Shown here: piece by piece, positions 24,465 to 56,515 of the stretch
Layout: each line of letters begins with the position of its first letter
Position numbering within the stretch: position 1 is the first letter of the stretch
Source of the DNA: Desulfurispora thermophila DSM 16022
GTDB taxonomy: Bacteria > Bacillota > Desulfotomaculia > Desulfotomaculales > Desulfurisporaceae
Length of the DNA: 64,000 nucleotides
Assembly (NCBI RefSeq): GCF_000376385.1
Contig: NZ_AQWN01000004.1
Coordinates: 1-64,000 of the forward strand
Reading direction: 5' to 3'
Notes under the pieces: generated by a model
Seen by the model: the letters and a program-made list of their open reading frames with translations, nothing else
What the model was told of the DNA's origin: nothing
Database searches by the model: none
Made by a program: the position numbers and the translations under genes

Positions 24465-24618
24465 CAATTAGTAAAACTTAATACTATGGCGTAATTTATA
24501 AACCGCTAATTGCGGGTGTGCATCCTTCGCTCGCCCGAATTGGACCGGGCAGCACCGGCGGCTCGGTCGCGGGCGGGCCGGGCCGCCCCTGATTCTACAT
24601 CCTGTCTCAACAGGGGCT

Positions 24619-24641
24619 GGCGCGGACATCCTGTCCGCGCC
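24619..24641 (+). repeat. GC-rich hairpin in the prsA leader
   Basis: GGCGCGGAC-ATCCT-GTCCGCGCC, a perfect 9-bp stem in the very GC-rich leader (24520-24690), where no gene is seen. No T-tract. Confidence 0.45.
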
Positions 24642-24693
24642 TCCCGGCCCGCTGCCGCGCCCTCGCCGGGTGCTGCAACCGGTACTCCAGACG

Positions 24694-44650: not shown

Positions 44651-44679
44651 TGGACAAGCTGCCAAATTAATGATATTAT
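44651..44679 (+). promoter_or_regulatory. Promoter of the cobalamin-riboswitch operon
   Basis: TGGACA, 17 bases, TATTAT (5/6 in each). Predicted start near 44686, about 60 bases before the riboswitch. Confidence 0.65.
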
Positions 44680-44748
44680 GCTGGCAGAAAGCTCCGGCCG
44701 GAATGTTTCCGGTTGAGAGGGTTTGGTTATCTGATAATTGAATATCCT

Positions 44749-44969
44749 CCGCGCAGGTGCCCCGGCTTATAACCGGGGTGAAAAGGGAACCGGGTGCAAA
44801 TCCCGGACGGTCCGGCCACTGTGAGTGGGGAGCCCTTTTAGCGCCGTCTACCGCCCGGCAGGGCGGCAGTCACTGGGCAATTGAAGTCCGGCCAGCAATG
44901 GCGGACGGCCTGGGAAGGCTGGAGCTAAAAGCGGTGTGGAGCCACAAGTCAGGAGACCTGCCTGTGCGG
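44749..44969 (+). promoter_or_regulatory. Cobalamin (AdoCbl-type) riboswitch
   Basis: P1 closes between CCGCGCAGG (44749-44757) and CCTGTGCGG (44961-44969). Inside are the conserved blocks of the Btu/Cbl class: GAAAAGGGAACC, GGTGCAAATCC, GGCCACTGTGAGTGG, AGTCACTGG, a GGGAAGG segment, and the B12 box CAGGAGACCTGCC. It is followed, 85 bases later, by a terminator. High cobalamin should reduce expression of the downstream uptake operon. Confidence 0.95.
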
Positions 44970-45053
44970 CCTGTAAGTATCGCCTTCCGAGGAAAGGCAG
45001 GTGCTTGGCCAGGTTGCCCCGCTCTATTGGTGTGGTAATCTATCTACGCTCAC

Positions 45054-45095
45054 AAAGCCCCGCTTTTCGTACCGGAAAGCGGGGCTTTAAATTTT
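45054..45095 (+). terminator. Riboswitch-linked terminator
   Basis: 13-bp perfect stem AAAGCCCCGCTTT/AAAGCGGGGCTTT followed by AAATTTT, between the riboswitch and the first gene. Likely the expression platform. Confidence 0.75.
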
Positions 45096-45241
45096 AACCC
45101 CATCCTATCATTCATCTCCTACCCTTATAATTTTCCTTGATTTAATCCGGCGGGGCACAGGCCCTGCCGGGACACTCCTTTTGCATCAGCATTGCTCGAG
45201 CAGCTTAAAAATAAAAAATATTCACACAGGGGGTATGTTTT

Positions 45242-48200
45242 GTGCTGCAGGCGGAGGGTGAAAAGGGTCGGTTTGCAAATGCTGGGAGGAAACTGTGTCG
45301 ATTATGGCAGGTTTTGCCAGCATTCCTGGTCCTTCTGAGCCTATTGAGTATGGTATGGCCGGGCCGGGCGCTGGCGGCTGCCCAGTCCAGCGATCAGGAA
45401 TTGAAAAGCAAGGCGGTGGAGTTTATCCACAGCCGCTTTGTGGCCGGGGAGGAAATTGACGGTTACACAATCCACGTTTTGCACCTGGCCGGGGAGGGTC
45501 TGAGCAGCAGCAAATGGACGGCGGCACCCCGCCGCACGGCAGGCGATGCCAGTTTGCAAAATCGCCTGGTGGTGCTGTCCGCCCTTTTAGGTGACGCTGT
45601 TTCACCTGTCAGCTATATAATTGGCACCCAAAACCCGGACGGCAGCTTTGGTCCCTATGCCAATATTTACGGCACCAGGGCGGCCCTGCAGGCGCTGGCG
45701 GAAGCCAAAAAGAAAGGCTGGCTGCCGGAAGGAGGAACAGAGGCACTGGATGGGGCCATAGCCCGGGCGGTGGGCTACCTGCACAGTGAGTATCAGAAAA
45801 ACAGCGGCCAGTACGCTGCCGCCGGGCAGTTTGACTACCGCTGTGTGCAGGCGCTGGTGGCTGCCGGGGAGAATCTGGCCGCCGAGGAATGGAAAGTGGG
45901 AGAAAACACATTATACCAGCAGGTGCTGACTGTGGCCCAGGCTGCCTATAGCAATGCCAGTGCGGTTTCGGCCGGCGAACTGGCCAAAAACCTGCTGGCA
46001 CTGGCGGCGGTGGCACCGGGTAACCAACTGGTCAACCAGCTGGCCGGCGCCATTTTGGCCAAACAGCAGACGGTAAACGGGCAGGTCTATTTTGGCGACA
46101 GCATTTATGAAGATGTGCTGGTGCTGACCGCACTGGGTCAGGCCGGCAAACTGGCAATTGACCAGAACGCCGCTCTGGCCTACCTGCGGAGCTTTAAGTA
46201 CGCCCACAGCAATGCCTGGGGGCAGCCGGCCGGCGCGGCCTGGGGCAGCTTTGAGCCGGAGGAGGCCGATTTGACCGGCCAGGTGTTGGCCGCTTTGAGC
46301 TTTTTCAGCGCCGCCGGCACGGCGGGCAGTGCAGTGGCCCAGGACATAGAGGAAGGTTTTACCTATCTGAAAGACATCCAGGATCGTGATACCGGGGCCA
46401 TCCGGGTGCAGTACGACAGCACTTTTGCCAGTGCTGAAGTGCTGCTGGCCGCGCTTTGGAACGGGCGGGCGCCCGGCGAGTTGACGGTGAAATCACGCAG
46501 CAAGACCGTGGCCGGGTGTCTGCTGGCTTTAAACGACTGGCCGGAGCAGAGCGATTTAAAGGACCGTCTGGCGACGCTTTTAGCCGGACGGCAGATCAAA
46601 GAGGGAACTGGCGCCGGTTCCTTTGAGAACAGTGTTTACAGTGATTTTTGGGCCCTGCTGGCCCTGGGCGAAGCCCAAAAGCTGGCACTGATTGATACGA
46701 ACACCGCCCGCAGTTACGTTTTAAGCAAGCAGGCGGCGGACGGTTCCTGGGGGGAAACCTTCGATCAGTACTATCCCGACTTTCTTTCCACCGCCCAGGC
46801 CCTGCGCACCCTGAGCTACCTGCCCGAATTCCAGGGGACGGTTGTTCAGCAGGCGGTGCAAAAGGGGCTGGCTTACTTAAAAGGGCTGCAGCAGGCCGAT
46901 GGCGGTGTGTATGCCACGCCTTTTGACGACCCGGCGGTGGACAACGCCGAATTGCTGCTCACTTTGAAACGCCTGGGGCAAAAAGCAAGCGGTTGGAAAA
47001 ACAGCGCCGGGCTGACCCCGCTGGACTACCTGAGGAAAAACAGCTACAACGGCGACGGAACATTTGGCGCCTCCCGCAACACCATGGATGCCACCTGGGT
47101 GCTGGCCGCCCTGCTGGCCTGGCCGGATAGCGCGAGCAGTGGCGGAAACAGCGGCGGCAGTGGGGGGAGCAGTGTGCCCGCCAGCCGCGCTGTGCAGGTA
47201 TACATTGCTGTGCAGGGCCGGGACGGAGAACTGCTTTTCAGTCCCGGTCTGGTGGAGGTGGAACCGGCAGGACGCTGGGGTTTGACCGCCCTGGGGGCGC
47301 TGGAGGCCACCGGTCTGGAATATGTCCACCGCGACGGCTTTGTCACCTCCATTGCCGGGCAGGCCAACAGCGGCATGCAGGGCTGGATGTACAGTGTGAA
47401 CGGTGATGTGCCGGCGGTTTTGGCCAGCGAGAAAAGTGTGCAGGCCAGGGATAAGGTGATCTGGTGGTACAGTAAGGATATAAACGCTCCCGTGCCCACC
47501 TGGAGTAACTTGCAGAAAAAAGCTGGTACGGGGGGCGGCGGTGTTTCCGGCAGCCAGGTTAGTGCTACTGCCGGGCAGGGTGAACTGAAACTGCCGGCCG
47601 GGGAAAAGGCCTGTCAGGAACTGGGCAGTCTTGCTGGCAGCGCCACAGCTCTGGACCAGTCCGGCAAGACCACTCGCCTGATTGCCGCAGCGGTAAAGCC
47701 GGCCTACCGGGATTTGCGCAAATGGCAAAAAGAGCTGGCCGGCAATCAAGTGGCGCTGGAAAAAGAACTGAAAAAAGGAGAAAGCGCCCTGCTGCAGGAT
47801 AAAACCGGTGAGGCCGCCCTGCTGGTGCCGGAAGGTGCGCTGGCTGCAGCTGGCCGGGTGACCCTGCGCGAGGTGAGCGGTGGGTTGCCTGCTGCAGCGC
47901 GCAACGCCCTGCCGGCCGGCTGGCGCGCGTTATCGGCCTGCTATAACCTGGAACTGCCGGCGGTGACGGCCGGACAATCTCTGCAGTTGATGCTGAAAAC
48001 GGCCTGGCCGGCTTATATAAAAGGAGAGAATTTGTTGCTGGGCCTGTGGACGACCGGGCAAAAATGGCTGGCCCTGCCCGCCGTGCTGGATGAAGCCGGG
48101 CGCCAGGTGCTGGCCCGGGTGGAACAGAGCGGCCAGCTGGTGCTTTTATACCGGAATAAAAGTATTTCCTTCCATGATTTACAGGGTGAGCAATGGAACT

Positions 48201-48715
48201 GGGCCCGCCCGGCCGTGGAGGAGCTGGCCGCCCTGGAAGTGGTGAACGGGGTGGGCCAGGACAGCTTTGCTCCGCAGCGCCAGCTCAGCCGGGCCGAACT
48301 GGCAGCCCTGCTGGCGCGCGCTCTGGGGCTGCCCGCTGCTGAGGCAGGCAATGGTGCGCCCTTCAGTGATGTGCGGGCGAGCGACTGGTTCGCGCCGGCT
48401 GTGGCGGCGGTACGGCAGGCCGGACTGATGCAAGGCGATGCCGGCGGCACTTTTGGTCCGCAGCGCCCGGTCAGCCGGCAGGAGTTGATGGTGGTGCTGG
48501 CCCGGGCCTGGGAACTGGAGCCGGGGGATAATCCCCTCTCCTTCGGGGACGCAGCCAGGGTGGCGGACTGGGCCCGGGAGGGTGTGCAGGCGGCAGTGCG
48601 GGCCGGCTTGGTGCGGGGTGATGAGCGGGGGCGGCTGAACCCCACCGCTCCCTTGAACCGGGCCGAGTGTGCCGTGCTGCTGCAGCGGGCCCTGGAGCTG
48701 GACAGAGCGCAATAG
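45242..48715 (+). CDS. S-layer-anchored transcobalamin-like protein (toroid + DUF4430 + SLH)
   Basis: 1157 residues. Signal peptide with cleavage near ALA-AAQ (about residue 46). Residues about 50-630 are repeats of a terpene-cyclase/prenyltransferase-like alpha-alpha toroid (NPDGSFGPYANIYGTRAAL, then DGSWGETFDQYYPDF). A Gly/Ser linker leads to a DUF4430 domain (about 652-748: GWMYSVNGDVP, VIWWYSKD), the fold of the transcobalamin C-terminal domain. A region of unknown fold (about 755-975) and three SLH repeats (from 977, 1041 and 1101) follow. Toroid plus DUF4430 is the layout of animal transcobalamin and intrinsic factor, so corrinoid binding at the cell surface is likely. GTG start with GGGGG 8 bases upstream. 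First gene after the riboswitch. Confidence 0.85.
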   Translation: MLQAEGEKGRFANAGRKLCRLWQVLPAFLVLLSLLSMVWPGRALAAAQSSDQELKSKAVEFIHSRFVAGEEIDGYTIHVLHLAGEGLSSSKWTAAPRRTAGDASLQNRLVVLSALLGDAVSPVSYIIGTQNPDGSFGPYANIYGTRAALQALAEAKKKGWLPEGGTEALDGAIARAVGYLHSEYQKNSGQYAAAGQFDYRCVQALVAAGENLAAEEWKVGENTLYQQVLTVAQAAYSNASAVSAGELAKNLLALAAVAPGNQLVNQLAGAILAKQQTVNGQVYFGDSIYEDVLVLTALGQAGKLAIDQNAALAYLRSFKYAHSNAWGQPAGAAWGSFEPEEADLTGQVLAALSFFSAAGTAGSAVAQDIEEGFTYLKDIQDRDTGAIRVQYDSTFASAEVLLAALWNGRAPGELTVKSRSKTVAGCLLALNDWPEQSDLKDRLATLLAGRQIKEGTGAGSFENSVYSDFWALLALGEAQKLALIDTNTARSYVLSKQAADGSWGETFDQYYPDFLSTAQALRTLSYLPEFQGTVVQQAVQKGLAYLKGLQQADGGVYATPFDDPAVDNAELLLTLKRLGQKASGWKNSAGLTPLDYLRKNSYNGDGTFGASRNTMDATWVLAALLAWPDSASSGGNSGGSGGSSVPASRAVQVYIAVQGRDGELLFSPGLVEVEPAGRWGLTALGALEATGLEYVHRDGFVTSIAGQANSGMQGWMYSVNGDVPAVLASEKSVQARDKVIWWYSKDINAPVPTWSNLQKKAGTGGGGVSGSQVSATAGQGELKLPAGEKACQELGSLAGSATALDQSGKTTRLIAAAVKPAYRDLRKWQKELAGNQVALEKELKKGESALLQDKTGEAALLVPEGALAAAGRVTLREVSGGLPAAARNALPAGWRALSACYNLELPAVTAGQSLQLMLKTAWPAYIKGENLLLGLWTTGQKWLALPAVLDEAGRQVLARVEQSGQLVLLYRNKSISFHDLQGEQWNWARPAVEELAALEVVNGVGQDSFAPQRQLSRAELAALLARALGLPAAEAGNGAPFSDVRASDWFAPAVAAVRQAGLMQGDAGGTFGPQRPVSRQELMVVLARAWELEPGDNPLSFGDAARVADWAREGVQAAVRAGLVRGDERGRLNPTAPLNRAECAVLLQRALELDRAQ

Positions 48716-48824
48716 ACCGGGAGAATTGGCCGAGGAACGGACGGTAATGTTGAACAAGAATATCTGTCTGCCGGCCTGAAAGTGGTACAAAATCGCTCAG
48801 GGGCTGGCTGTAGGGGTGCGTTTA

Positions 48825-49634
48825 ATGAGTTTGTGGCGCAAAGCACTGACCTATCTGCTGCCCCTGTTTCTGCTGCTGGCTGCCCTGCTGGGGCCTCTTC
48901 TGTACAACCAGTGGAGCGGTGTGGAGCAAACAGCGGGACAGGGGGTAGCGCAACAGCAACAACAGGAGGCAGGCGGCCAGGGTGGCCGGGTATCTGCCGG
49001 GTCTGGACTACCGGCTTATACAGACTCTGATGTCGGCCAATCTCCGGCTGGCAGCTGTGCCCCGGTGCCGGCCACTCCGGCCAGCGCTTCTGGCCGTACG
49101 CCGACCGGCGGTGTGTCTCAGGCCGCTCCCCAAAAAAAGGCAGCTGCATCTTTCGAGGTTAATAATACAGCAGGATCTGTGCCCGGCAGCAGGGTGGGTG
49201 CAGCAGTGGGCGGCAGCGCTCAGAACACAGGGGCGGACAAGTCTCCACCGGCACCTGCTGCCGCTGCCGGCAGCGAGGTAGGGCAAGATGGAGGAACAGC
49301 CGGTACGGTGGGCCTGGCGGTGGTGGGCCGCCGGGGCGAGCTGATTTACGGTCCGGCACTTTTGCCCTTGCCGCCCGGGCGGCAGCCCAGCGCTCTGGAA
49401 TTGCTGGATCTGGCCGGCCTGCCCTACCAGCTATCGCCCCGCTTTCCCGGTTTTGTGACCGCCATTGCCGGGCAGGAAAACAAAGGCCAGTCGGGCTGGA
49501 TGTACAAGGTGAACCAGGAGATACCCGCCTGCACGGCCGATCGCAAAGTGCTGCAGCCCGGAGACAGGGTAATCTGGTGGTACAGTAACAAAATGGGCGA
49601 CCCCGTGCCCCGCTGGGAGGATTTGAAAAAATAG
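48825..49634 (+). CDS. Membrane-anchored DUF4430 (transcobalamin C-terminal-like) protein
   Basis: 269 residues from the ATG at 48825. N-terminal signal/anchor segment (LTYLLPLFLLLAALLGPLL), then about 130 residues of low-complexity Ala, Gly, Ser, Pro and Gln sequence, a spacer that would cross the wall, and one DUF4430 domain (about 163-269: ELIYGPALLPLPPG, GWMYKVNQEIPA, VIWWYSNK). It probably hands corrinoid from the surface protein to the ECF transporter. This is inferred from domain and operon. It lacks the toroid domain. AGGGG lies 8 bases before the start. Confidence 0.8.
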   Translation: MSLWRKALTYLLPLFLLLAALLGPLLYNQWSGVEQTAGQGVAQQQQQEAGGQGGRVSAGSGLPAYTDSDVGQSPAGSCAPVPATPASASGRTPTGGVSQAAPQKKAAASFEVNNTAGSVPGSRVGAAVGGSAQNTGADKSPPAPAAAAGSEVGQDGGTAGTVGLAVVGRRGELIYGPALLPLPPGRQPSALELLDLAGLPYQLSPRFPGFVTAIAGQENKGQSGWMYKVNQEIPACTADRKVLQPGDRVIWWYSNKMGDPVPRWEDLKK

Positions 49635-49676
49635 AAGATGTGGCAAAAGCTTTTTTATCAGGACAGAGGGGTGTTT

Positions 49677-50558
49677 ATGCAGAGCTGGCACCCGCTGGCG
49701 GCGCTGGTCTACCTGGGGGCGCTGCTGGTGCTGAGCCTGGTCCTGGATCATCCTTTCTATCTGCTGGCTGCCCTGGGCCTGGCGGCAGGTGGCGTTGTGG
49801 CGGCGGGCGCACTACAGGCCGGAGAGCTTTTCCTGCGCCCCGGTCTGTACATGGCAGCCCTGGCCGCTTTGCTCAATCCGCTGCTCATTCGCTCGGGCCA
49901 GACCGTGCTTTTTTACCTGCCCCTGCCGGGGCGACCGCCCTTCACCATGGAAGCGCTCTGTTACGGCGCGGCCAGCGGGGTGCGCCTGCTGGCCGTGCTG
50001 GGCATTTTCTGCTTGTTCAACCAGATCATTCATCCCGACCGCCTGCTGGGCCTGCTGGCCCGGCCGGCCCGGCGCTTTTCTCTTTTGCTGGCGCTGAGCA
50101 CCCGCCTGGTGCCCCGCATGGCTCTGGCCCTGCACAATATTGTGGAAGTGCAGACCCTGCGCGGGGTGGATTTCCGCCGGGGGAGCCTGAAGGAGCGGGC
50201 GGGTAAATATCTGACGGTTTTCAATATTTTGCTGCTCACGGCCCTGGAGAACGCTTTTCAGACCGCGGAAGCCATGCAGGCGCGCGCCCTGGGCAGCGGC
50301 CCGGCCAGCCGTTACAGCCGGGAGAAATGGCGGCGGCGGGACACTCTGGTGACCGGCAGCAGCCTGCTGGCCCTGGGGCTGACGGCCTGGGCGGCCATAA
50401 GCGGCGCGGTTGCCTTTCACTACTACCCGCGCCTTTCCCGCCCGCTGGCCGGGAAGGAAAGCGGGGCCGTCCTGCTGGCCCTGCTCCTGCTGCTGGGCTG
50501 GCCGGCTCTGGCGGGATGGGGGGAAAAACATTGGCGTTACTGGAAGTCAAAGACCTGA
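49677..50558 (+). CDS. ecfT: ECF transporter transmembrane subunit T
   Basis: 293 residues, about six membrane segments. CbiQ/EcfT family: PLAALVYLGALLVLSLVL early, GIFCLFNQIIHPDRLLGLL, and the two coupling motifs with the A-R-G pattern, LRGVDFRRGSLKERAG and AMQARALGSGP. The T subunit couples the ATPases to the substrate-binding S subunit. AGAGGGG stands before the ATG at 49677, and the earlier ATG at 49638 has no ribosome binding site. Its end overlaps the ATPase gene by 28 bases. Confidence 0.88.
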   Translation: MQSWHPLAALVYLGALLVLSLVLDHPFYLLAALGLAAGGVVAAGALQAGELFLRPGLYMAALAALLNPLLIRSGQTVLFYLPLPGRPPFTMEALCYGAASGVRLLAVLGIFCLFNQIIHPDRLLGLLARPARRFSLLLALSTRLVPRMALALHNIVEVQTLRGVDFRRGSLKERAGKYLTVFNILLLTALENAFQTAEAMQARALGSGPASRYSREKWRRRDTLVTGSSLLALGLTAWAAISGAVAFHYYPRLSRPLAGKESGAVLLALLLLLGWPALAGWGEKHWRYWKSKT

Positions 50559-52207
50559 CATATTACTACCCGGCTGCGGAGCGCCCGGCCCTGCAGGGAA
50601 TAAATTTAAGTATCCAGCCGGGTGAATTTGTGCTTTTGCTGGGGGGTTCGGGCAGCGGCAAGTCCACCCTGGCCCGGGCCCTGGCCGGTCTGGTGCCCGA
50701 GTTTTACGGCGGGCGGATGGGGGGCGAGGTGTTTTTCCAGGGCTGCCCCTTAAGCCGGATGGATCAAAGGCAGCTGGCCCGCCGGGTGGGCATTGTTTTT
50801 CAGGAGCCGGAAAACCAGCTGGTCATGCTCAGCGCCGAGGCCGAGCTGGCTTTCGGGCTGGAAAACCTGGGGCTTAAGTCGGGCGAGATGCGCCAGCGGG
50901 TGGCCGAAGTGCTGGGTTTTCTGGGCCTGCAGGATGCGGCCCGGCGCTTTTCCGCCACCCTGTCGGGCGGTGAAAAGCAAAAGCTGGCCATTGGTGCCGT
51001 GCTGGCCATGCAACCCCGGGTGCTGATACTGGATGAGCCCACTTCCCAGCTGGATCCGCCGGCGGCGGAGGAGATTCTGCAACTGCTCAGGCGCCTGCAC
51101 GAGGATTTTGCTTTGACCATTGTGCTGGTGGAACAGCGCCTGGAGCGTTGTTATCACCTGGCCGACCGGGTGGTGCTGCTGGAAGAAGGGCGCCTGGTCT
51201 ACCAGGGGCCACCGGCCGCCGCAGCCGCCTGGCAGGCGCGGCAGGGCTGGCCATTTGTGCCTTCCCTGGCCGCGTTGTTTGCCCGCGCCGGGGTGGCAGA
51301 GCCGCCCTTAACCGTGGGGCAGGCCCGGCGCCTGCTGGGGCAAATGGGCGAGGAACAGCGGCAGGCCGTGTGGCGGGCGGCGGCGGAGGCCGGGTTTTTT
51401 TCTTACCGGCGGCACAAAACTGCCCGGCAGCCATCCCTTTTAGAGGCGCGGGGGGTGTGGTTCGCCTATCCGGAAAAGGGCGATGTGCTGCGCGGGGTGG
51501 ACCTGCAGCTGGCGCCCGGCAATATTCTGGCCCTGCTCGGCCCCAACGGAGCGGGTAAGACCACTCTTTTAAAGGTGCTCACCGGCCTGCTCCAACCGGC
51601 CGCCGGCCGGGTGCTGGTGCAGGGGAAGGATTTGGCCGCCATTCCCCGCAGCTCGGTCGGTCGCCTGGTGGGCTATCTTTCCCAGCAGCCAGGCGACTAC
51701 CTTTACCACAACACACTGGAGGAAGAGATCCAGTTTACCCGGCGCAACCTGGGGCTGGAGATCAGCGAGCAGCACACGCGGCAGTTACTGGCCGCACTGA
51801 AACTGGAGGAGTACAGGCAGTGCCACCCCCGGGATTTAAGCAGCGGCCAGCGCCAGCGGGCCGCCCTGGCTGCCGTGCTGGCCGCCGACCCGCCCCTGCT
51901 GCTGCTGGACGAACCTACCCGCGGTCTGGATGCCCGCTTGAAAAAGGGGCTGGGTGAATTGCTGAAAAGGCTGGCCGGTGAGGGGCGGGGCATTATACTG
52001 GTCACCCATGATGTGGAGTTTGCCGCTAGTTACGCTCAGCAGGTGGCTCTGCTGTTTGCCGGTGAAATTGTGGCGCAGGGGGAGGCGGCGCCGGTGCTGG
52101 GTCGTTCGTTGTTTTATGCTCCCCAGGTCAGCCGTCTTTGGCGCTTTGAGCGGGAGAATGAAGGCACGCCCGAACGGGAAGCAATTACTACAGATCGATG
52201 CTTTTAG
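50531..52207 (+). CDS. ecfA: ECF transporter ATPase, fused A-A' subunits
   Basis: 558 residues from the TTG at 50531 (GGGATGGGGGG upstream). Two complete ABC domains in one chain: LLGGSGSGKSTLARALAG, LSGGEKQKLAIGAVLA, VLILDEPTSQLDP in the first (1-230), and LLGPNGAGKTTLLK, LSSGQRQRAALAAVLA, LLLLDEPTRGLDA in the second (about 300-545). ECF transporters normally have two separate ATPases, EcfA and EcfA', and fusions are known. It energises uptake through EcfT and the S subunit encoded on either side. Confidence 0.92.
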   Translation: MALLEVKDLTYYYPAAERPALQGINLSIQPGEFVLLLGGSGSGKSTLARALAGLVPEFYGGRMGGEVFFQGCPLSRMDQRQLARRVGIVFQEPENQLVMLSAEAELAFGLENLGLKSGEMRQRVAEVLGFLGLQDAARRFSATLSGGEKQKLAIGAVLAMQPRVLILDEPTSQLDPPAAEEILQLLRRLHEDFALTIVLVEQRLERCYHLADRVVLLEEGRLVYQGPPAAAAAWQARQGWPFVPSLAALFARAGVAEPPLTVGQARRLLGQMGEEQRQAVWRAAAEAGFFSYRRHKTARQPSLLEARGVWFAYPEKGDVLRGVDLQLAPGNILALLGPNGAGKTTLLKVLTGLLQPAAGRVLVQGKDLAAIPRSSVGRLVGYLSQQPGDYLYHNTLEEEIQFTRRNLGLEISEQHTRQLLAALKLEEYRQCHPRDLSSGQRQRAALAAVLAADPPLLLLDEPTRGLDARLKKGLGELLKRLAGEGRGIILVTHDVEFAASYAQQVALLFAGEIVAQGEAAPVLGRSLFYAPQVSRLWRFERENEGTPEREAITTDRCF

Positions 52208-52251
52208 CTTGTGAATGGCCTGGGGAGGGTGCTCTCAGGAGGTGGCCGCAG

Positions 52252-53007
52252 GTGAATTGGTTGGCCTTGGGAATAAAATTGGCTCGCTGGCGGGGCTTGC
52301 TCTGCTGCGGCGCCGTGCTGGCGCTCATCGCCTGCAGCATGGTGCCCGGTGCGCCCCTGGCCGGCCAGCCCTGGGAGTGGCTGCTGGCCGAGGTGATGGC
52401 ACTGCTCATTCTCTATGCTATCTGGGATCTGGAGGGCAGCCGCCTTTCCGCCCGTGAGCTGGCCGTGCCCGCCGTGCTGGGCGCCGTGGCCGCGGCCGGG
52501 CGGGTGGCGCTGGCGGCCGTGCCCGGCGTGCAGCCGGTGACCTTTCTGGTTATCGCCAGCGGCTATGTGCTGGGGGCGCGGGCGGGCTGGCTGGTGGGTG
52601 GCTGTGCCGTGCTGGCCTCCAACTTTTTTCTGGGACACGGCCCCTGGACACCCTACCAGATGGTGAGCTGGGGCCTGGCCGGAGCCAGCGCCGCGCTGCT
52701 GGCCCGCCTGCGGCCCGCGGTAAGCCCGTGGCTGCTGGCCGGTTTTTGCTTTATCTGGGGCTATTTGTACGGCTGGATCATGAACCTGTGGTTCTGGCTC
52801 AACTTTGTGGCCGTGCACAACTGGCCGTCCTTTCTGGGCGCTTACGCCGCCAGCTTCTGGCTGGATACTCTGCACGCCCTGGGCAACGCCTTTTTCTGCC
52901 TCACCTGCGGGCGGGCTACTCTGGGCATTTTGCAGCGGGCCCGCCGCCGGCTGACTGTGCAGCGGTTGGAGGAGGTGGGGCAGCACTCTCCGCCGCAGCG
53001 CCAGTGA
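52252..53007 (+). CDS. ECF transporter substrate-binding S component (probable corrinoid)
   Basis: 251 residues from the GTG at 52252, since AGGAGG is 8 bases before. Six or so membrane segments with ECF-type S features (an Ala-rich loop GRVALAAVPGVQPVTFLVI, then GYVLGARAGWLVGGCAV and LGHGPWTPYQMVSWGLAG). S components of this group are found in vitamin and corrinoid ECF systems. The riboswitch, the DUF4430 proteins and CbiZ make cobalamin or its precursor the likely substrate. The direct evidence is context only. It completes the T-A-S transporter set. Confidence 0.8.
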   Translation: MNWLALGIKLARWRGLLCCGAVLALIACSMVPGAPLAGQPWEWLLAEVMALLILYAIWDLEGSRLSARELAVPAVLGAVAAAGRVALAAVPGVQPVTFLVIASGYVLGARAGWLVGGCAVLASNFFLGHGPWTPYQMVSWGLAGASAALLARLRPAVSPWLLAGFCFIWGYLYGWIMNLWFWLNFVAVHNWPSFLGAYAASFWLDTLHALGNAFFCLTCGRATLGILQRARRRLTVQRLEEVGQHSPPQRQ

Positions 53008-53033
53008 AGGCCCGGCCCGCAAGGAAAATGTTG

Positions 53034-53930
53034 ATGTCGGGCAATAACAATGTGCTCAAAAGGTGCCCCCACATGTTTACAAAGGTGGGAAATGCCGTGT
53101 TTGTCGAATACCCCTGCTGGATGCCGGTGCACTGTCTTTCCGATATCTACTGCTTTATTTTCCAGGGTCACACCTTTTTGATCGCCGCCGTGCGGCCGCT
53201 CAAGGTGTTGAGTTCGGCCGTGCTGGGCGGGGAAAAGCAAACCGTCCGTTATATTTTTAACCATACGGTGGACAGGGATTACGCTTCGCCCCATCCGGAA
53301 CGCGATCTGGCCGCCCTGGCCGGCCGCATGGGGCTGGGCGAGCAGGCTGTGGGGTTGATGACCGCGGTGGATGTGCGGCACACGGTGAGCCAGGTGGAGC
53401 AGCACGGTGAACTGGTGGTGGCTGTTTTCGCCACGGCCGGCGTGGCCAACCTGTGCTCGGCCGGTGTGGCCGCACCCTGGCCGCCCGGGGAGCGGGGAGG
53501 ATGCGCTGCGCCTGCCCACGCCGGGCGGGGTGATTGTGGTGTACAAGCCCCTCCGGTACAGACGGGCTTCTCTGGAGCAGACCGGGAGGAGGGCGGGGCA
53601 AGCGGTCGGTTCGGGCAACAATATCGGCCAGGTACTATAAACATCATTGTACTGGTGGACGGCCATCTTAGCCGCTCTGCCATGGTCAATGCAGTGATCA
53701 CGGCCACCGAAGCCAAGGCGCTGGCCGTGCAGCAGGCCGGATTATGCCTGCCCGATGGTCGTCCGGCCACCGGCACCACCACCGACGCGCTGGTCATCGC
53801 CTGCACCGGCCGGGGGCCGCTTTTGCCTTATGCCGGTGCGGCCACTGTCCTGGGCAGTATGATCGGTGGGGCGGTTTACCGGGCGGTGGAGCAGGGCATT
53901 GACCGCTACCGGGCAGCCAAGGGTGGCTGA
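53034..53930 (+). CDS. cbiZ: Adenosylcobinamide amidohydrolase CbiZ
   Basis: 298 residues. CbiZ family signature: GLMTAVDVRHTVSQVEQ, VFATAGVANLCSAG, then INIIVLVDGHLSRSAMVN, ITATEAKALAVQQAG, and GTTTDALVIACTGRGP near the end. CbiZ removes the aminopropanol arm of adenosylcobinamide or of pseudocobalamin so that salvaged corrinoids can be rebuilt. Start ATG 53034 (AAGGA, 8 bases), not 53028. Between the TAGV and INII motifs is an insert of about 45 residues of odd composition (Gly, Arg, Ala-rich). Two compensating frameshifts cannot be excluded. Last gene of the operon, followed by a terminator. Confidence 0.85.
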   Translation: MSGNNNVLKRCPHMFTKVGNAVFVEYPCWMPVHCLSDIYCFIFQGHTFLIAAVRPLKVLSSAVLGGEKQTVRYIFNHTVDRDYASPHPERDLAALAGRMGLGEQAVGLMTAVDVRHTVSQVEQHGELVVAVFATAGVANLCSAGVAAPWPPGERGGCAAPAHAGRGDCGVQAPPVQTGFSGADREEGGASGRFGQQYRPGTINIIVLVDGHLSRSAMVNAVITATEAKALAVQQAGLCLPDGRPATGTTTDALVIACTGRGPLLPYAGAATVLGSMIGGAVYRAVEQGIDRYRAAKGG

Positions 53931-54008
53931 GTAAAAAGTAATAGCTGTTCGGTACATTCATTTCCGCCCTGAAGCCCCGGGAAAAAAAGGAGGAAAATAA
54001 CCCACTGT

Positions 54009-54035
54009 CCGCCGAGATGTTCGGCGGGCTTTTTC
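54009..54035 (+). terminator. Terminator of the cobalamin operon
   Basis: CCGCCGA-GATGT-TCGGCGG followed by GCTTTTTC. Confidence 0.75.
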
Positions 54036-54149
54036 ATTTGGCATGCCAGCACAAATATTCAGAATTGAAGGAATTGGGATGTGGAAAGCGAAATCTTTTA
54101 CAGGGCAGTATGCTGGATATATTTCGTCAGAAATGGGGGCCTGATCAAA

Positions 54150-55319
54150 ATGCGCCTGGGCTATTTTTGCAGCTACACTCCCGAGGAAATACTGCTGGCC
54201 GCCGGTTGCCAGCCGGTACGGCTTTTCCCCACCTGTGCGCCTGGGGACAAGGCTGAGCGGCACTTGCAAAATTTTGCCTGCGGCTATGCCCGCAGCGCGC
54301 TGGAATATGTGCTGGGCGGAACCATGGAGGGGTTGGACGGCGTGATTATCCCGGCCGCCTGTGACTCCATGCGGGCGGTGGCGGAGATTTTGCGCCTGAA
54401 CTTTCCCGCCCGCTTTGTGTTTTTTCTCAACCTGCCCCTGCGCCTGGACAGCCCGGGGGCCGGACAGTTCTATGTCAGTGAGCTGACCGCGCTTAAGCGG
54501 GCCCTGGAGAAACATACCGGGCGTACGGTGACGGCACGGCGGCTGGCGGATGCCATGGCACTCACCGCCCGCTTTCAGGCGGGGCTGTGGCAACTGTGGT
54601 ACGGGGTAAAACAAACAATTGCCGCAGATGTCGTGCCGGGAATAGTACCTCCGGCGGCGGAAGGGGCAGCATCTGAGCAGTGCGGGGAATCTGCTGGAGG
54701 GGACGATATTGATGCTGGCTGGCCTGCGGTGCGCCGCTTTGCTCTCCTGCAGCGCTGGCTAAGCCAGGACCGGCAGGCAGCGCTGGCCGAGCTGCAGCAG
54801 CTGCTGAGCGAGTTGCCCGCTGGTGCGGGGGAAGGGGCGACAGGTGGCCGTGTGCTGGCCGTTGGCGCCAGTCTGGCCGATGTGGCCTGGTTGGAGATAC
54901 TGGAGAAGGGTGGCCTGCAGGTGGTGGGTGACGACCTGTGCAGCGGTAGCCGTTATTTTATGAGCGTTCTTCAAACCGTTCCTGCCAGGCCGGGGCCGGA
55001 TGAGGATCTGAACGCTTTGCTTGAACAGCTGGCCGAGCGCTATGTCCACCGTGTACCCTGCCCCACCAAATACCCTTCAGCAAAACGCCAGGCTTTCTGG
55101 CAGTGGCTCTACCGGCACTGCCGGCCCCGGGGCGTGGTCTATTTCCAGAACATCTACTGTGAGCCGCACGGCTTTGATTTACCCCACTTGAAAGCCTGGT
55201 GGGCGGAAAAGGGCCTGCCGCTGCTGCGCCTGGATGTGGAACCGGGCCGGCCGCCCGGCGAGGCCGAACTGACGCGGGTGCAGGCTTTTGCCGAAATGCT
55301 GGGGGGTGCGGGGGCATGA
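54150..55319 (+). CDS. 2-hydroxyacyl-CoA dehydratase D-component-like subunit (HgdB family)
   Basis: 389 residues from the ATG at 54150. YFCSYTPEEILLAAGCQPV, then DGVIIPAACDSMRAVAEIL and GVVYFQNIYCEPHGF are typical of HgdA/HgdB and BcrB/C subunits, with cysteines that bind a [4Fe-4S] cluster. Such proteins reduce or dehydrate CoA thioesters after activation by an ATP-dependent activator (HgdC type), and the double-cubane protein relatives do other reductions. No activator gene lies nearby, so the partner is elsewhere or the protein belongs to another subgroup. It overlaps the next gene by four bases (ATGA), as coupled subunits do. Confidence 0.8.
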   Translation: MRLGYFCSYTPEEILLAAGCQPVRLFPTCAPGDKAERHLQNFACGYARSALEYVLGGTMEGLDGVIIPAACDSMRAVAEILRLNFPARFVFFLNLPLRLDSPGAGQFYVSELTALKRALEKHTGRTVTARRLADAMALTARFQAGLWQLWYGVKQTIAADVVPGIVPPAAEGAASEQCGESAGGDDIDAGWPAVRRFALLQRWLSQDRQAALAELQQLLSELPAGAGEGATGGRVLAVGASLADVAWLEILEKGGLQVVGDDLCSGSRYFMSVLQTVPARPGPDEDLNALLEQLAERYVHRVPCPTKYPSAKRQAFWQWLYRHCRPRGVVYFQNIYCEPHGFDLPHLKAWWAEKGLPLLRLDVEPGRPPGEAELTRVQAFAEMLGGAGA

Positions 55320-56515
55320 AAAGCAAAAAACTCAAGTGTGCGGGGCAGCTGAAAAACCTGGGCATGGGCTATTACATGGGGGCCATGGCGGCCAAGAGCG
55401 CCGGTCAGCCCGTGGCCTGGATCACCAGCGGTGCGCCGGTGGAAATGCTTTACGCCCACGGTGTCTTCCCCTTTTATCCGGAGAACTACGGCACACTGTG
55501 CGGCAGTCGCCGCCAGTCCCAGGAGCTGTGTCAGGCCGCCGAGGCCCACGGTTATAACCAGGATCTCTGCTCATATGCCCGTTGCACCCTGGGCTCAGTG
55601 CTGGAGGGCAAAGGGCCGCTGGGGCCGTTGCCGCCCCCCGACTTACTGGTGACGGCCAAGAACATCTGCCACACCGTGATCAAATGGTGGGAAGTGCTGG
55701 CCCGTCACTATAATTGCCCGCTCTTTGTGCTGGACACGCCCTTTGTGCGGGGCGAGGTCACGCCGCAGCAGCTGGATTATGTGGCCGGGCAACTGCGCGA
55801 ACTGGCCGACTTTCTGGAGCGGGTTACCGGACGCCCCTTCGATCTGGATAAATTCCGGGCCACCCTGGAGTTGGCCGACCGGGGGGCCGCCCTGTGGCAG
55901 CAGGTGCTGGACAGCCGCCGCCACCGTCCCTGCCCGCTCACCTCGCTGGACATGTTCACGGGCATGTTCCCCATTGTCACCCTGCGGGGCACCGAGTACT
56001 GCCCGCAGTTTTACAGTGTCCTGCTGTCCGAAGTGCAGGAAAGAATAGCCGCCGGTGAGGGAGCGGTGGAGGGGGAAAAGCACCGCCTGCTCTGGGACAA
56101 CATCGCCATCTGGTATAACTTCGGCCTGATGGAGCATTTCCACGCCCGGGGCGCCGTCTTTGTGGCCGAAACCTACACCGCGGCCTGGGGGCATTACCGC
56201 TTCGCGGTAGATGAGGGCGACATATGGCAGACCTACGCCCGGCCCTATACCGAAACGCTGTTGAATATCGACCTGGACCTGCGCTATGCCCAGATGGCCA
56301 GGGCCATCCGCGACTTTGTTATTGACGGTGTGGTGTTGCACTCCAACCGCAGCTGCAAGACCTACTCCCTGGGCCAGCTGGATCTGGCCCGCCGCCTGCA
56401 GAGCGAGCTGGGTATACCCGTGCTGCTGCTGGAGGCCGACATGACCGATCCCCGCGCCTTTGCCGAAGGCCCGGCCCTCACCCGGATAGAGGCTTTTCTG
56501 GAGATGCTGGGGTAG
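55316..56515 (+). CDS. 2-hydroxyacyl-CoA dehydratase D-component-like subunit (second)
   Basis: 399 residues. ITSGAPVEMLYAHGVFPFY, LCSYARCTLGSVLEG with two cysteines, HSNRSCKTYSLGQLDL and the ending VLLLEADMTDPRAFAEG match the other large-subunit type of the family. Both subunits together would carry the iron-sulfur clusters of one heterodimer. The substrate is unknown. Context gives no CoA transferase. Expression appears independent of the cobalamin operon, because a terminator separates them. The start overlaps the preceding stop. Confidence 0.82.
   Translation: MKSKKLKCAGQLKNLGMGYYMGAMAAKSAGQPVAWITSGAPVEMLYAHGVFPFYPENYGTLCGSRRQSQELCQAAEAHGYNQDLCSYARCTLGSVLEGKGPLGPLPPPDLLVTAKNICHTVIKWWEVLARHYNCPLFVLDTPFVRGEVTPQQLDYVAGQLRELADFLERVTGRPFDLDKFRATLELADRGAALWQQVLDSRRHRPCPLTSLDMFTGMFPIVTLRGTEYCPQFYSVLLSEVQERIAAGEGAVEGEKHRLLWDNIAIWYNFGLMEHFHARGAVFVAETYTAAWGHYRFAVDEGDIWQTYARPYTETLLNIDLDLRYAQMARAIRDFVIDGVVLHSNRSCKTYSLGQLDLARRLQSELGIPVLLLEADMTDPRAFAEGPALTRIEAFLEMLG

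What the first reader, a model, noticed from the sequence alone, without database searches (positions are those of the whole stretch)
44651..53930. Cobalamin-riboswitch operon for capture of corrinoids by a transcobalamin-like surface protein
In one unit the sequence shows a riboswitch with terminator, a 1157-residue exported protein with alpha-alpha toroid, DUF4430 and three SLH repeats, an anchored DUF4430 protein, an ECF T subunit, a fused A-A' ATPase, an S component, and CbiZ. Toroid plus DUF4430 is the layout of animal transcobalamin and intrinsic factor. The inference is a Gram-positive counterpart of a binding protein at the outer wall, feeding a corrinoid to an ECF importer and remodelling it with CbiZ. 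Together it seems a full capture-import-remodel pathway.
Basis: partly seen in the sequence, partly recalled or inferred. Interest (0 to 1): 0.85.

Follow-up and report, generated by a model that had tools for sequence, protein, structure and literature searches.

The report
Bacterial surface vitamin-B12 capture operon
This is an operon, switched by a vitamin B12-sensing RNA, that very probably lets an anaerobic bacterium catch vitamin B12-like molecules at its surface with relatives of our own B12 carrier proteins, import them and strip them for re-use; such bacterial B12 catchers were already predicted in 2007, so it is a well-supported new example rather than a new kind of system.

Summary
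The unit at 44651-54037 has a promoter-like site, a strong cobalamin riboswitch (97 bits), a leader terminator hairpin, six co-directional genes and a closing terminator. The S component, too weak for Pfam alone, belongs by profile to the family of CbrT (E 9e-22), the biochemically proven cobalamin/cobinamide S component. The toroid-DUF4430 part folds with high confidence (pLDDT 91) into two toroids, not one, plus DUF4430; for toroid 2 plus DUF4430 the 14 best PDB matches are all haptocorrin, transcobalamin or intrinsic factor. The closed cobalamin cleft is not reproduced (rmsd about 20 A), so binding is inferred. Related operons occur across the order, 34 of 36 with a cobalamin riboswitch upstream; S component and DUF4430 co-occur in 57 of 113 genomes. 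CbiZ is here but in only about a sixth of the operons examined. The genome also encodes much of de novo corrinoid synthesis, so this looks like salvage and remodelling in a likely prototroph. Burroughs et al. (2007) predicted B12-scavenging toroid-SLBB surface proteins with CbiO/CbiQ genes, naming Desulfotomaculum. New here: riboswitch link, S-component identity, CbiZ, double toroid, probable prototrophy.

The parts
44651..44679 (+). sigma-70-like promoter TGGACA-17-TATTAT, TG before the second hexamer
   Evidence: consensus scan, (1 found, 0.4 expected)
44738..44979 (+). cobalamin riboswitch aptamer
   Evidence: RF00174 97.4 bits
45054..45095 (+). leader terminator-like hairpin with short T tract; expression platform
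   Evidence: 16-bp stem, -27 kcal/mol, then AAATTTT; competing upstream pairings exist
45242..48715 (+). exported protein, 1157 aa: signal sequence, two alpha/alpha toroids (residues ~51-330 and ~340-630), DUF4430/SLBB (~682-745), three SLH (~980-1150)
48816..49634 (+). 272-aa protein: N-terminal membrane anchor, long linker, DUF4430/SLBB
49638..50558 (+). ECF T component (CbiQ family)
   Evidence: PF02361 27.4 bits
50516..52207 (+). fused ECF ATPases A-A'
   Evidence: ABC_tran twice, both with intact motifs
52198..53007 (+). S component of the CbrT family
   Evidence: profile A2 vs 6fnp_A E 9.2e-22
53073..53930 (+). CbiZ, adenosylcobinamide amidohydrolase (start codon uncertain, 53028 or 53073)
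   Evidence: PF01955 190 bits
54007..54037 (+). rho-independent terminator closing the operon
   Evidence: 10-bp stem then TTTTTCATTT

Best explanation
A corrinoid-repressible salvage operon. When intracellular corrinoid is low, the riboswitch lets transcription run past the leader terminator. The SLH-anchored protein sits on the cell wall and traps corrinoid between an alpha/alpha toroid and its DUF4430 (SLBB) domain, as transcobalamin does. The membrane-anchored DUF4430 protein helps pass it to the CbrT-type S component, which works with the T and A-A' subunits to import it using ATP. Inside, CbiZ removes the lower-ligand arm from foreign corrinoids, giving cobyric acid that the cell's own CbiB and lower-ligand genes rebuild into its preferred cobamide. 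Shown by tools: operon layout, riboswitch, family of every part, predicted folds, conservation, presence of CbiB, CobT and BzaB-type genes. Inferred: direction of the switch, corrinoid binding by the surface protein, the relay by the second DUF4430 protein, and remodelling.
For: Riboswitch here and upstream of 34 of 36 related operons, 30 of them within 1.3 kb on the same strand. S component in the CbrT family; CbrT imports cobalamin and cobinamide (PMC5997447). Fold search with toroid 2 + DUF4430: ranks 1-14 all haptocorrin, transcobalamin or intrinsic factor, E 7.6e-9 to 8.1e-6. Predicted beta-hairpin after the beta-grasp helix, the mark of the transcobalamin clade (PMC1796856). No catalytic DxDD motif in the toroids. 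S component and DUF4430 co-occur in 57 of 113 genomes, 4 and 5 with only one, 47 with neither. CbiZ in the operon. Other riboswitches of the genome precede cobT, BzaB/ThiC-like genes and cbiM; CbiD, E, F, G, a cobalt-precorrin-6A reductase and CbiB are present. Only a weak, partial FecCD-type permease (30.8 bits) is found, so there is no clear BtuC.
Against: No binding data for any bacterial DUF4430-toroid protein were found in the papers searched. The models do not superpose on transcobalamin as a whole. No sequence-level match to transcobalamin in the PDB; PF01122 is reached by only 2 of 29 relatives even at E 0.05. In 16 of 29 relatives an Ig-like domain separates toroid and DUF4430. The host seems able to make corrinoids itself. 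CbiZ is absent from most related operons.
Confidence: 0.82

Rival explanations
1. The surface proteins are mainly structural or wall-adhesion proteins with a toroid fold (or bind something else, such as a polysaccharide), and only the ECF importer and CbiZ handle corrinoids.
For: SLH anchoring is common in structural S-layer proteins; an Ig-like domain is inserted between toroid and DUF4430 in many relatives; the closed cleft is not reproduced in the models.
Against: Behind a B12 riboswitch and beside a CbrT-type importer in tens of genomes; nearest folds are the vertebrate B12 carriers; this genome has DUF4430 nowhere else.
Confidence: 0.1
2. The operon imports a corrinoid precursor or fragment (cobinamide or an incomplete corrinoid) rather than complete cobamides, for assimilation by CbiZ.
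For: CbiZ acts on adenosylcobinamide (family name); CbrT also takes cobinamide.
Against: CbiZ is missing from most sibling operons; CbrT binds cobalamin slightly better than cobinamide. It differs from the main explanation only in ligand range.
Confidence: 0.25
3. A cobalt/nickel ECF importer (CbiQ-CbiO-like) annotated by analogy.
For: T component matches PF02361 'cobalt transport protein'; the ATPases match CbiO models.
Against: The S component is CbrT-like, not CbiM-like; a separate CbiM-type cobalt importer lies behind another riboswitch in the same genome.
Confidence: 0.02
4. The toroids are terpene-cyclase or prenyltransferase-like enzymes.
For: Profile matches to squalene-hopene cyclase models; drimenyl diphosphate synthase leads the fold hits of the full model.
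Against: No DxDD motif in the window protein or nearly all relatives; exported and wall-bound; fold hits of the toroid-DUF4430 unit are led by B12 carriers.
Confidence: 0.01

Closest known systems
Bacterial toroid-SLBB (transcobalamin-like clade) surface proteins predicted by Burroughs, Balaji, Iyer and Aravind 2007 (PMC1796856)
   Same: Toroid N-terminal to the SLBB (= DUF4430) domain, secreted or wall-bound, second paralogous extracellular SLBB protein in the operon, CbiO/CbiQ genes alongside, B12 scavenging proposed; Desulfotomaculum named as an example.
   Different: In the passages read, that paper does not give the riboswitch, the CbrT-type S component, CbiZ or a double toroid; it says such bacteria usually lack key B12 synthesis enzymes, whereas this genome has many of them.
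Animal transcobalamin, intrinsic factor, haptocorrin
   Same: Alpha/alpha toroid plus C-terminal DUF4430-type beta-grasp domain; best fold matches.
   Different: Two toroids, SLH anchoring, predicted domain orientation not superposable, little sequence similarity in the toroid (14.4 vs 25 bits for PF01122).
ECF-CbrT of Lactobacillus delbrueckii (PDB 6fnp, PMC5997447)
   Same: S component of the same family (E 9.2e-22) driven by an ECF module.
   Different: Here the S component has its own T and fused A-A' genes beside it; L. delbrueckii CbrT shares one ECF module with other S components. No surface binding protein is described in the passages read.
Operon-2 of Dehalobacter restrictus (PMC4285132)
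   Same: Cobalamin-riboswitch operon joining corrinoid import with CbiZ; up 346-fold in transcript on corrinoid starvation.
   Different: Uses Fep/Btu-type ABC transporters, not ECF; no toroid-DUF4430 protein is mentioned in the passages read.
BtuG surface lipoproteins of Bacteroides (PMC6143338, PMC10404256)
   Same: Surface capture of B12 ahead of an importer (abstracts).
   Different: Gram-negative lipoprotein working with TonB-dependent BtuB; a different protein family (own knowledge).

Membership tests
Cobalamin riboswitch (RF00174) | covariance-model score above gathering | tested here: met
   97.4 vs 31.5 bits, full length
Cobalamin riboswitch (RF00174) | ligand-dependent switch of expression | not testable with these tools
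   terminator-like hairpin and competing pairings exist; no expression data
SLBB superfamily, transcobalamin clade (DUF4430) | DUF4430 profile match above cut-off | tested here: met
   49.7 and 48.8 vs 23.8 bits; all 29 relatives match
SLBB superfamily, transcobalamin clade (DUF4430) | beta-hairpin insert after the beta-grasp helix | tested here: met
   strands 370-373 and 376-380 after helix 359-365 in the predicted model; prediction only
Animal transcobalamin/intrinsic factor family (PF01122) | PF01122 toroid profile above cut-off | tested here: not met
   14.4 vs 25 bits; 2 of 29 relatives reach E 0.05
Animal transcobalamin/intrinsic factor family (PF01122) | toroid and beta domain enclosing one cobalamin | tested here: inconclusive
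   both domains aligned over 405-468 columns, but rmsd 19-23 A
CbrT family S component | sequence-profile match to CbrT | tested here: met
   6fnp_A, E 9.2e-22, profile positions 56-226 of 235
CbrT family S component | high-affinity binding of cobalamin/cobinamide | not testable with these tools
   needs purified protein
ECF transporter with its own S, T, A and A' genes | T component and two intact ATPase domains beside the S gene | tested here: met
   PF02361; two Walker A, signature and Walker B sets
CbiZ | PF01955 above cut-off | tested here: met
   190.2 vs 27 bits
Class II terpene cyclase | catalytic DxDD motif | tested here: not met
   absent in the window protein

The most novel reading that the evidence does not exclude
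A two-step surface relay feeding an ECF importer: a wall-bound double-toroid trap and a separate membrane-tethered DUF4430 protein hand corrinoid to the CbrT-type S component, giving an ECF transporter dedicated extracellular binding proteins, in a cell that also makes its own corrinoid and so uses the system for recapture and remodelling.
Probability: 0.35. Interest if true: 0.65.

Novelty: new member of a known kind. Interest (0 to 1): 0.42.

Why it matters
It turns a 2007 prediction into a directly testable system: a compact operon with a riboswitch, a B12-carrier-like surface protein, an importer of known specificity class and a remodelling enzyme. Confirming binding would show that wall-bound relatives of the proteins animals use to carry vitamin B12 work in bacteria, would bear on the proposal that animals acquired them from Gram-positive bacteria, and would show how an importer usually thought to rely on its S component alone could use extracellular capture proteins.

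Tried and rejected
Direct sequence searches of the DUF4430 part and of the toroid-DUF4430 profiles against PDB sequences found no transcobalamin; only fold comparison did. The 743-residue model gave mixed fold hits led by drimenyl diphosphate synthases, so toroid 2 + DUF4430 was modelled alone; rigid superposition stayed poor, possibly because one toroid cut from the pair is less well defined (pTM 0.59, lower pLDDT at its first helices). Terpene cyclase activity was considered and rejected (no DxDD). Extension of the operon into the downstream HGD-D genes was rejected (terminator at 54007-54037; no match to the first of them in the related loci). The founding ECF paper (Rodionov 2009) is not held, so whether it already discusses DUF4430 neighbours of CbrT could not be checked; supplementary files could not be read.

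Full report
Observation. The unit runs from a promoter-like site at 44651 through a cobalamin riboswitch (44738-44979, 97.4 bits) and a stable hairpin followed by AAATTTT (45054-45088) into six genes read in one direction, ending at a clear rho-independent terminator (54007-54037). Pfam and NCBIfam confirm DUF4430 in two proteins, three SLH repeats, a CbiQ-type T subunit, two fused ECF ATPases and CbiZ. Correction: the 1157-residue protein contains two alpha/alpha toroids. Its model (residues 31-773, 29 sequences, pLDDT 91.0) shows 26 helices of four or more residues before the DUF4430 domain.

Identity of the importer. Pfam alone leaves the S component below its cut-off (22.4 vs 30.7 bits). 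A profile of 27 operon relatives finds CbrT of Lactobacillus delbrueckii (6fnp_A) at E 9.2e-22; the next chain is at E 3.4. CbrT has been shown to bind cobalamin and cobinamide and, with its ECF module, to import them (PMC5997447). Besides the riboswitch this is the strongest evidence on substrate.

Surface proteins. The toroid-2/DUF4430 model has, as its fourteen best PDB matches, only haptocorrin, transcobalamin and intrinsic factor (E 7.6e-9 to 8.1e-6). The domains match but the whole does not superpose (TM mostly 0.33-0.38, rmsd about 20 A), so the ligand cleft is not demonstrated. The beta-hairpin after the beta-grasp helix, the mark of the transcobalamin clade, is present in the prediction. 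The catalytic DxDD motif of class II terpene cyclases is missing, in line with a binding role. Residues conserved through all 29 relatives include a DD...D stretch in toroid 2 (D532, D533, D537 of the modelled part) and the G..GWM segment of DUF4430; whether they line a ligand site was not tested.

Conservation. A protein search of the order found matches in 57 of 113 genomes; the full-length relatives are 43-53% identical. Similar genes occur in Moorella, Thermosediminibacter, Thermovorax, Syntrophomonas and Geosporobacter. Of 36 operons whose upstream side is present, 30 have a cobalamin riboswitch within 1.3 kb on the same strand and 34 within 3.1 kb. The S component and DUF4430 co-occur in 57 genomes, with 4 and 5 genomes having only one and 47 neither (Fisher P 3e-21; genomes are related, so this overstates independence). 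CbiZ is in the neighbourhood in 7 of 41 operons counting this one.

Host physiology. The genome has five cobalamin riboswitches: before cobT, before two BzaB/ThiC-like lower-ligand genes, before cbiM, before this operon, and near a CobN-like gene. It encodes CbiD, CbiE, CbiF, CbiG, a cobalt-precorrin-6A reductase and CbiB, so it is probably a corrinoid producer (the pathway was sampled, not completed). It has one CbiZ and only a weak partial FecCD-type permease match, so this ECF system may be its main corrinoid importer. The most sensible role is recapture and salvage: foreign corrinoids are taken up, cut by CbiZ to the cobyric acid level and rebuilt with the cell's own lower ligand. The remodelling step rests on known CbiZ biochemistry, not on a test here.

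Mechanism. Low corrinoid permits read-through of the leader terminator; the wall-bound protein concentrates corrinoid; the membrane-tethered DUF4430 protein may pass it to the S component; the ECF module imports it; CbiZ prepares it for rebuilding. A comparable riboswitch operon joining import and CbiZ, but with Fep/Btu-type ABC transporters, rises 346-fold on corrinoid starvation in Dehalobacter restrictus (PMC4285132).

Novelty. Burroughs et al. (2007, PMC1796856) already described bacterial toroid-SLBB fusions, naming Desulfotomaculum, predicted that both domains bind B12, noted a second extracellular SLBB protein and CbiO/CbiQ genes in the operons, and proposed transfer to animals. What is added here is the systematic riboswitch link, the CbrT identity of the S component, CbiZ in the operon, the double toroid and evidence for corrinoid synthesis in the host. 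No experimental test of a bacterial member was found in the papers searched; that library lacks most subscription journals. I therefore file it as a new member of a known, still untested, kind.

Noticed in passing
L046:6101-7738 (+), L033:6292-7725 (-), L038:13024-14556 (+), L066:8762-10210 (+): Related operons contain an additional toroid-only surface protein, with SLH domains or (L033) a copper-amine-oxidase N-terminal domain; the window lacks it.
   Followed up: partly
L035, L036, L038, L044, L046, L049, L065: Two cobalamin riboswitches in tandem precede the operon in several relatives.
   Followed up: no
L152:13739-15400 (-) and riboswitch G000:C12:111450-111656 (-): A cobalamin riboswitch near a 554-aa CobN/magnesium-chelatase-H-like ORF in the same genome; the ORF matches only the C-terminal part of CobN.
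   Followed up: partly
16 of 29 relatives in alignment A1: A bacterial Ig-like (Big_2) domain lies between toroid and DUF4430 in the shorter relatives, so the two domains are not always adjacent.
   Followed up: partly
G034:C1:2093150-2144773: A second, larger DUF4430 cluster with its own CbrT-type S component and very long DUF4430 open frames (2037 and 2412 aa).
   Followed up: no
window 54156-56515 (+): Two 2-hydroxyglutaryl-CoA dehydratase D-component-like genes (213 and 275 bits) directly downstream but behind a terminator.
   Followed up: no
window 24580-24644 (-): TwoAYGGAY RNA motif just above its gathering score (44.9 vs 43 bits); another in L055:9815-9879, upstream of the DUF4430 gene on the same strand.
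   Followed up: no
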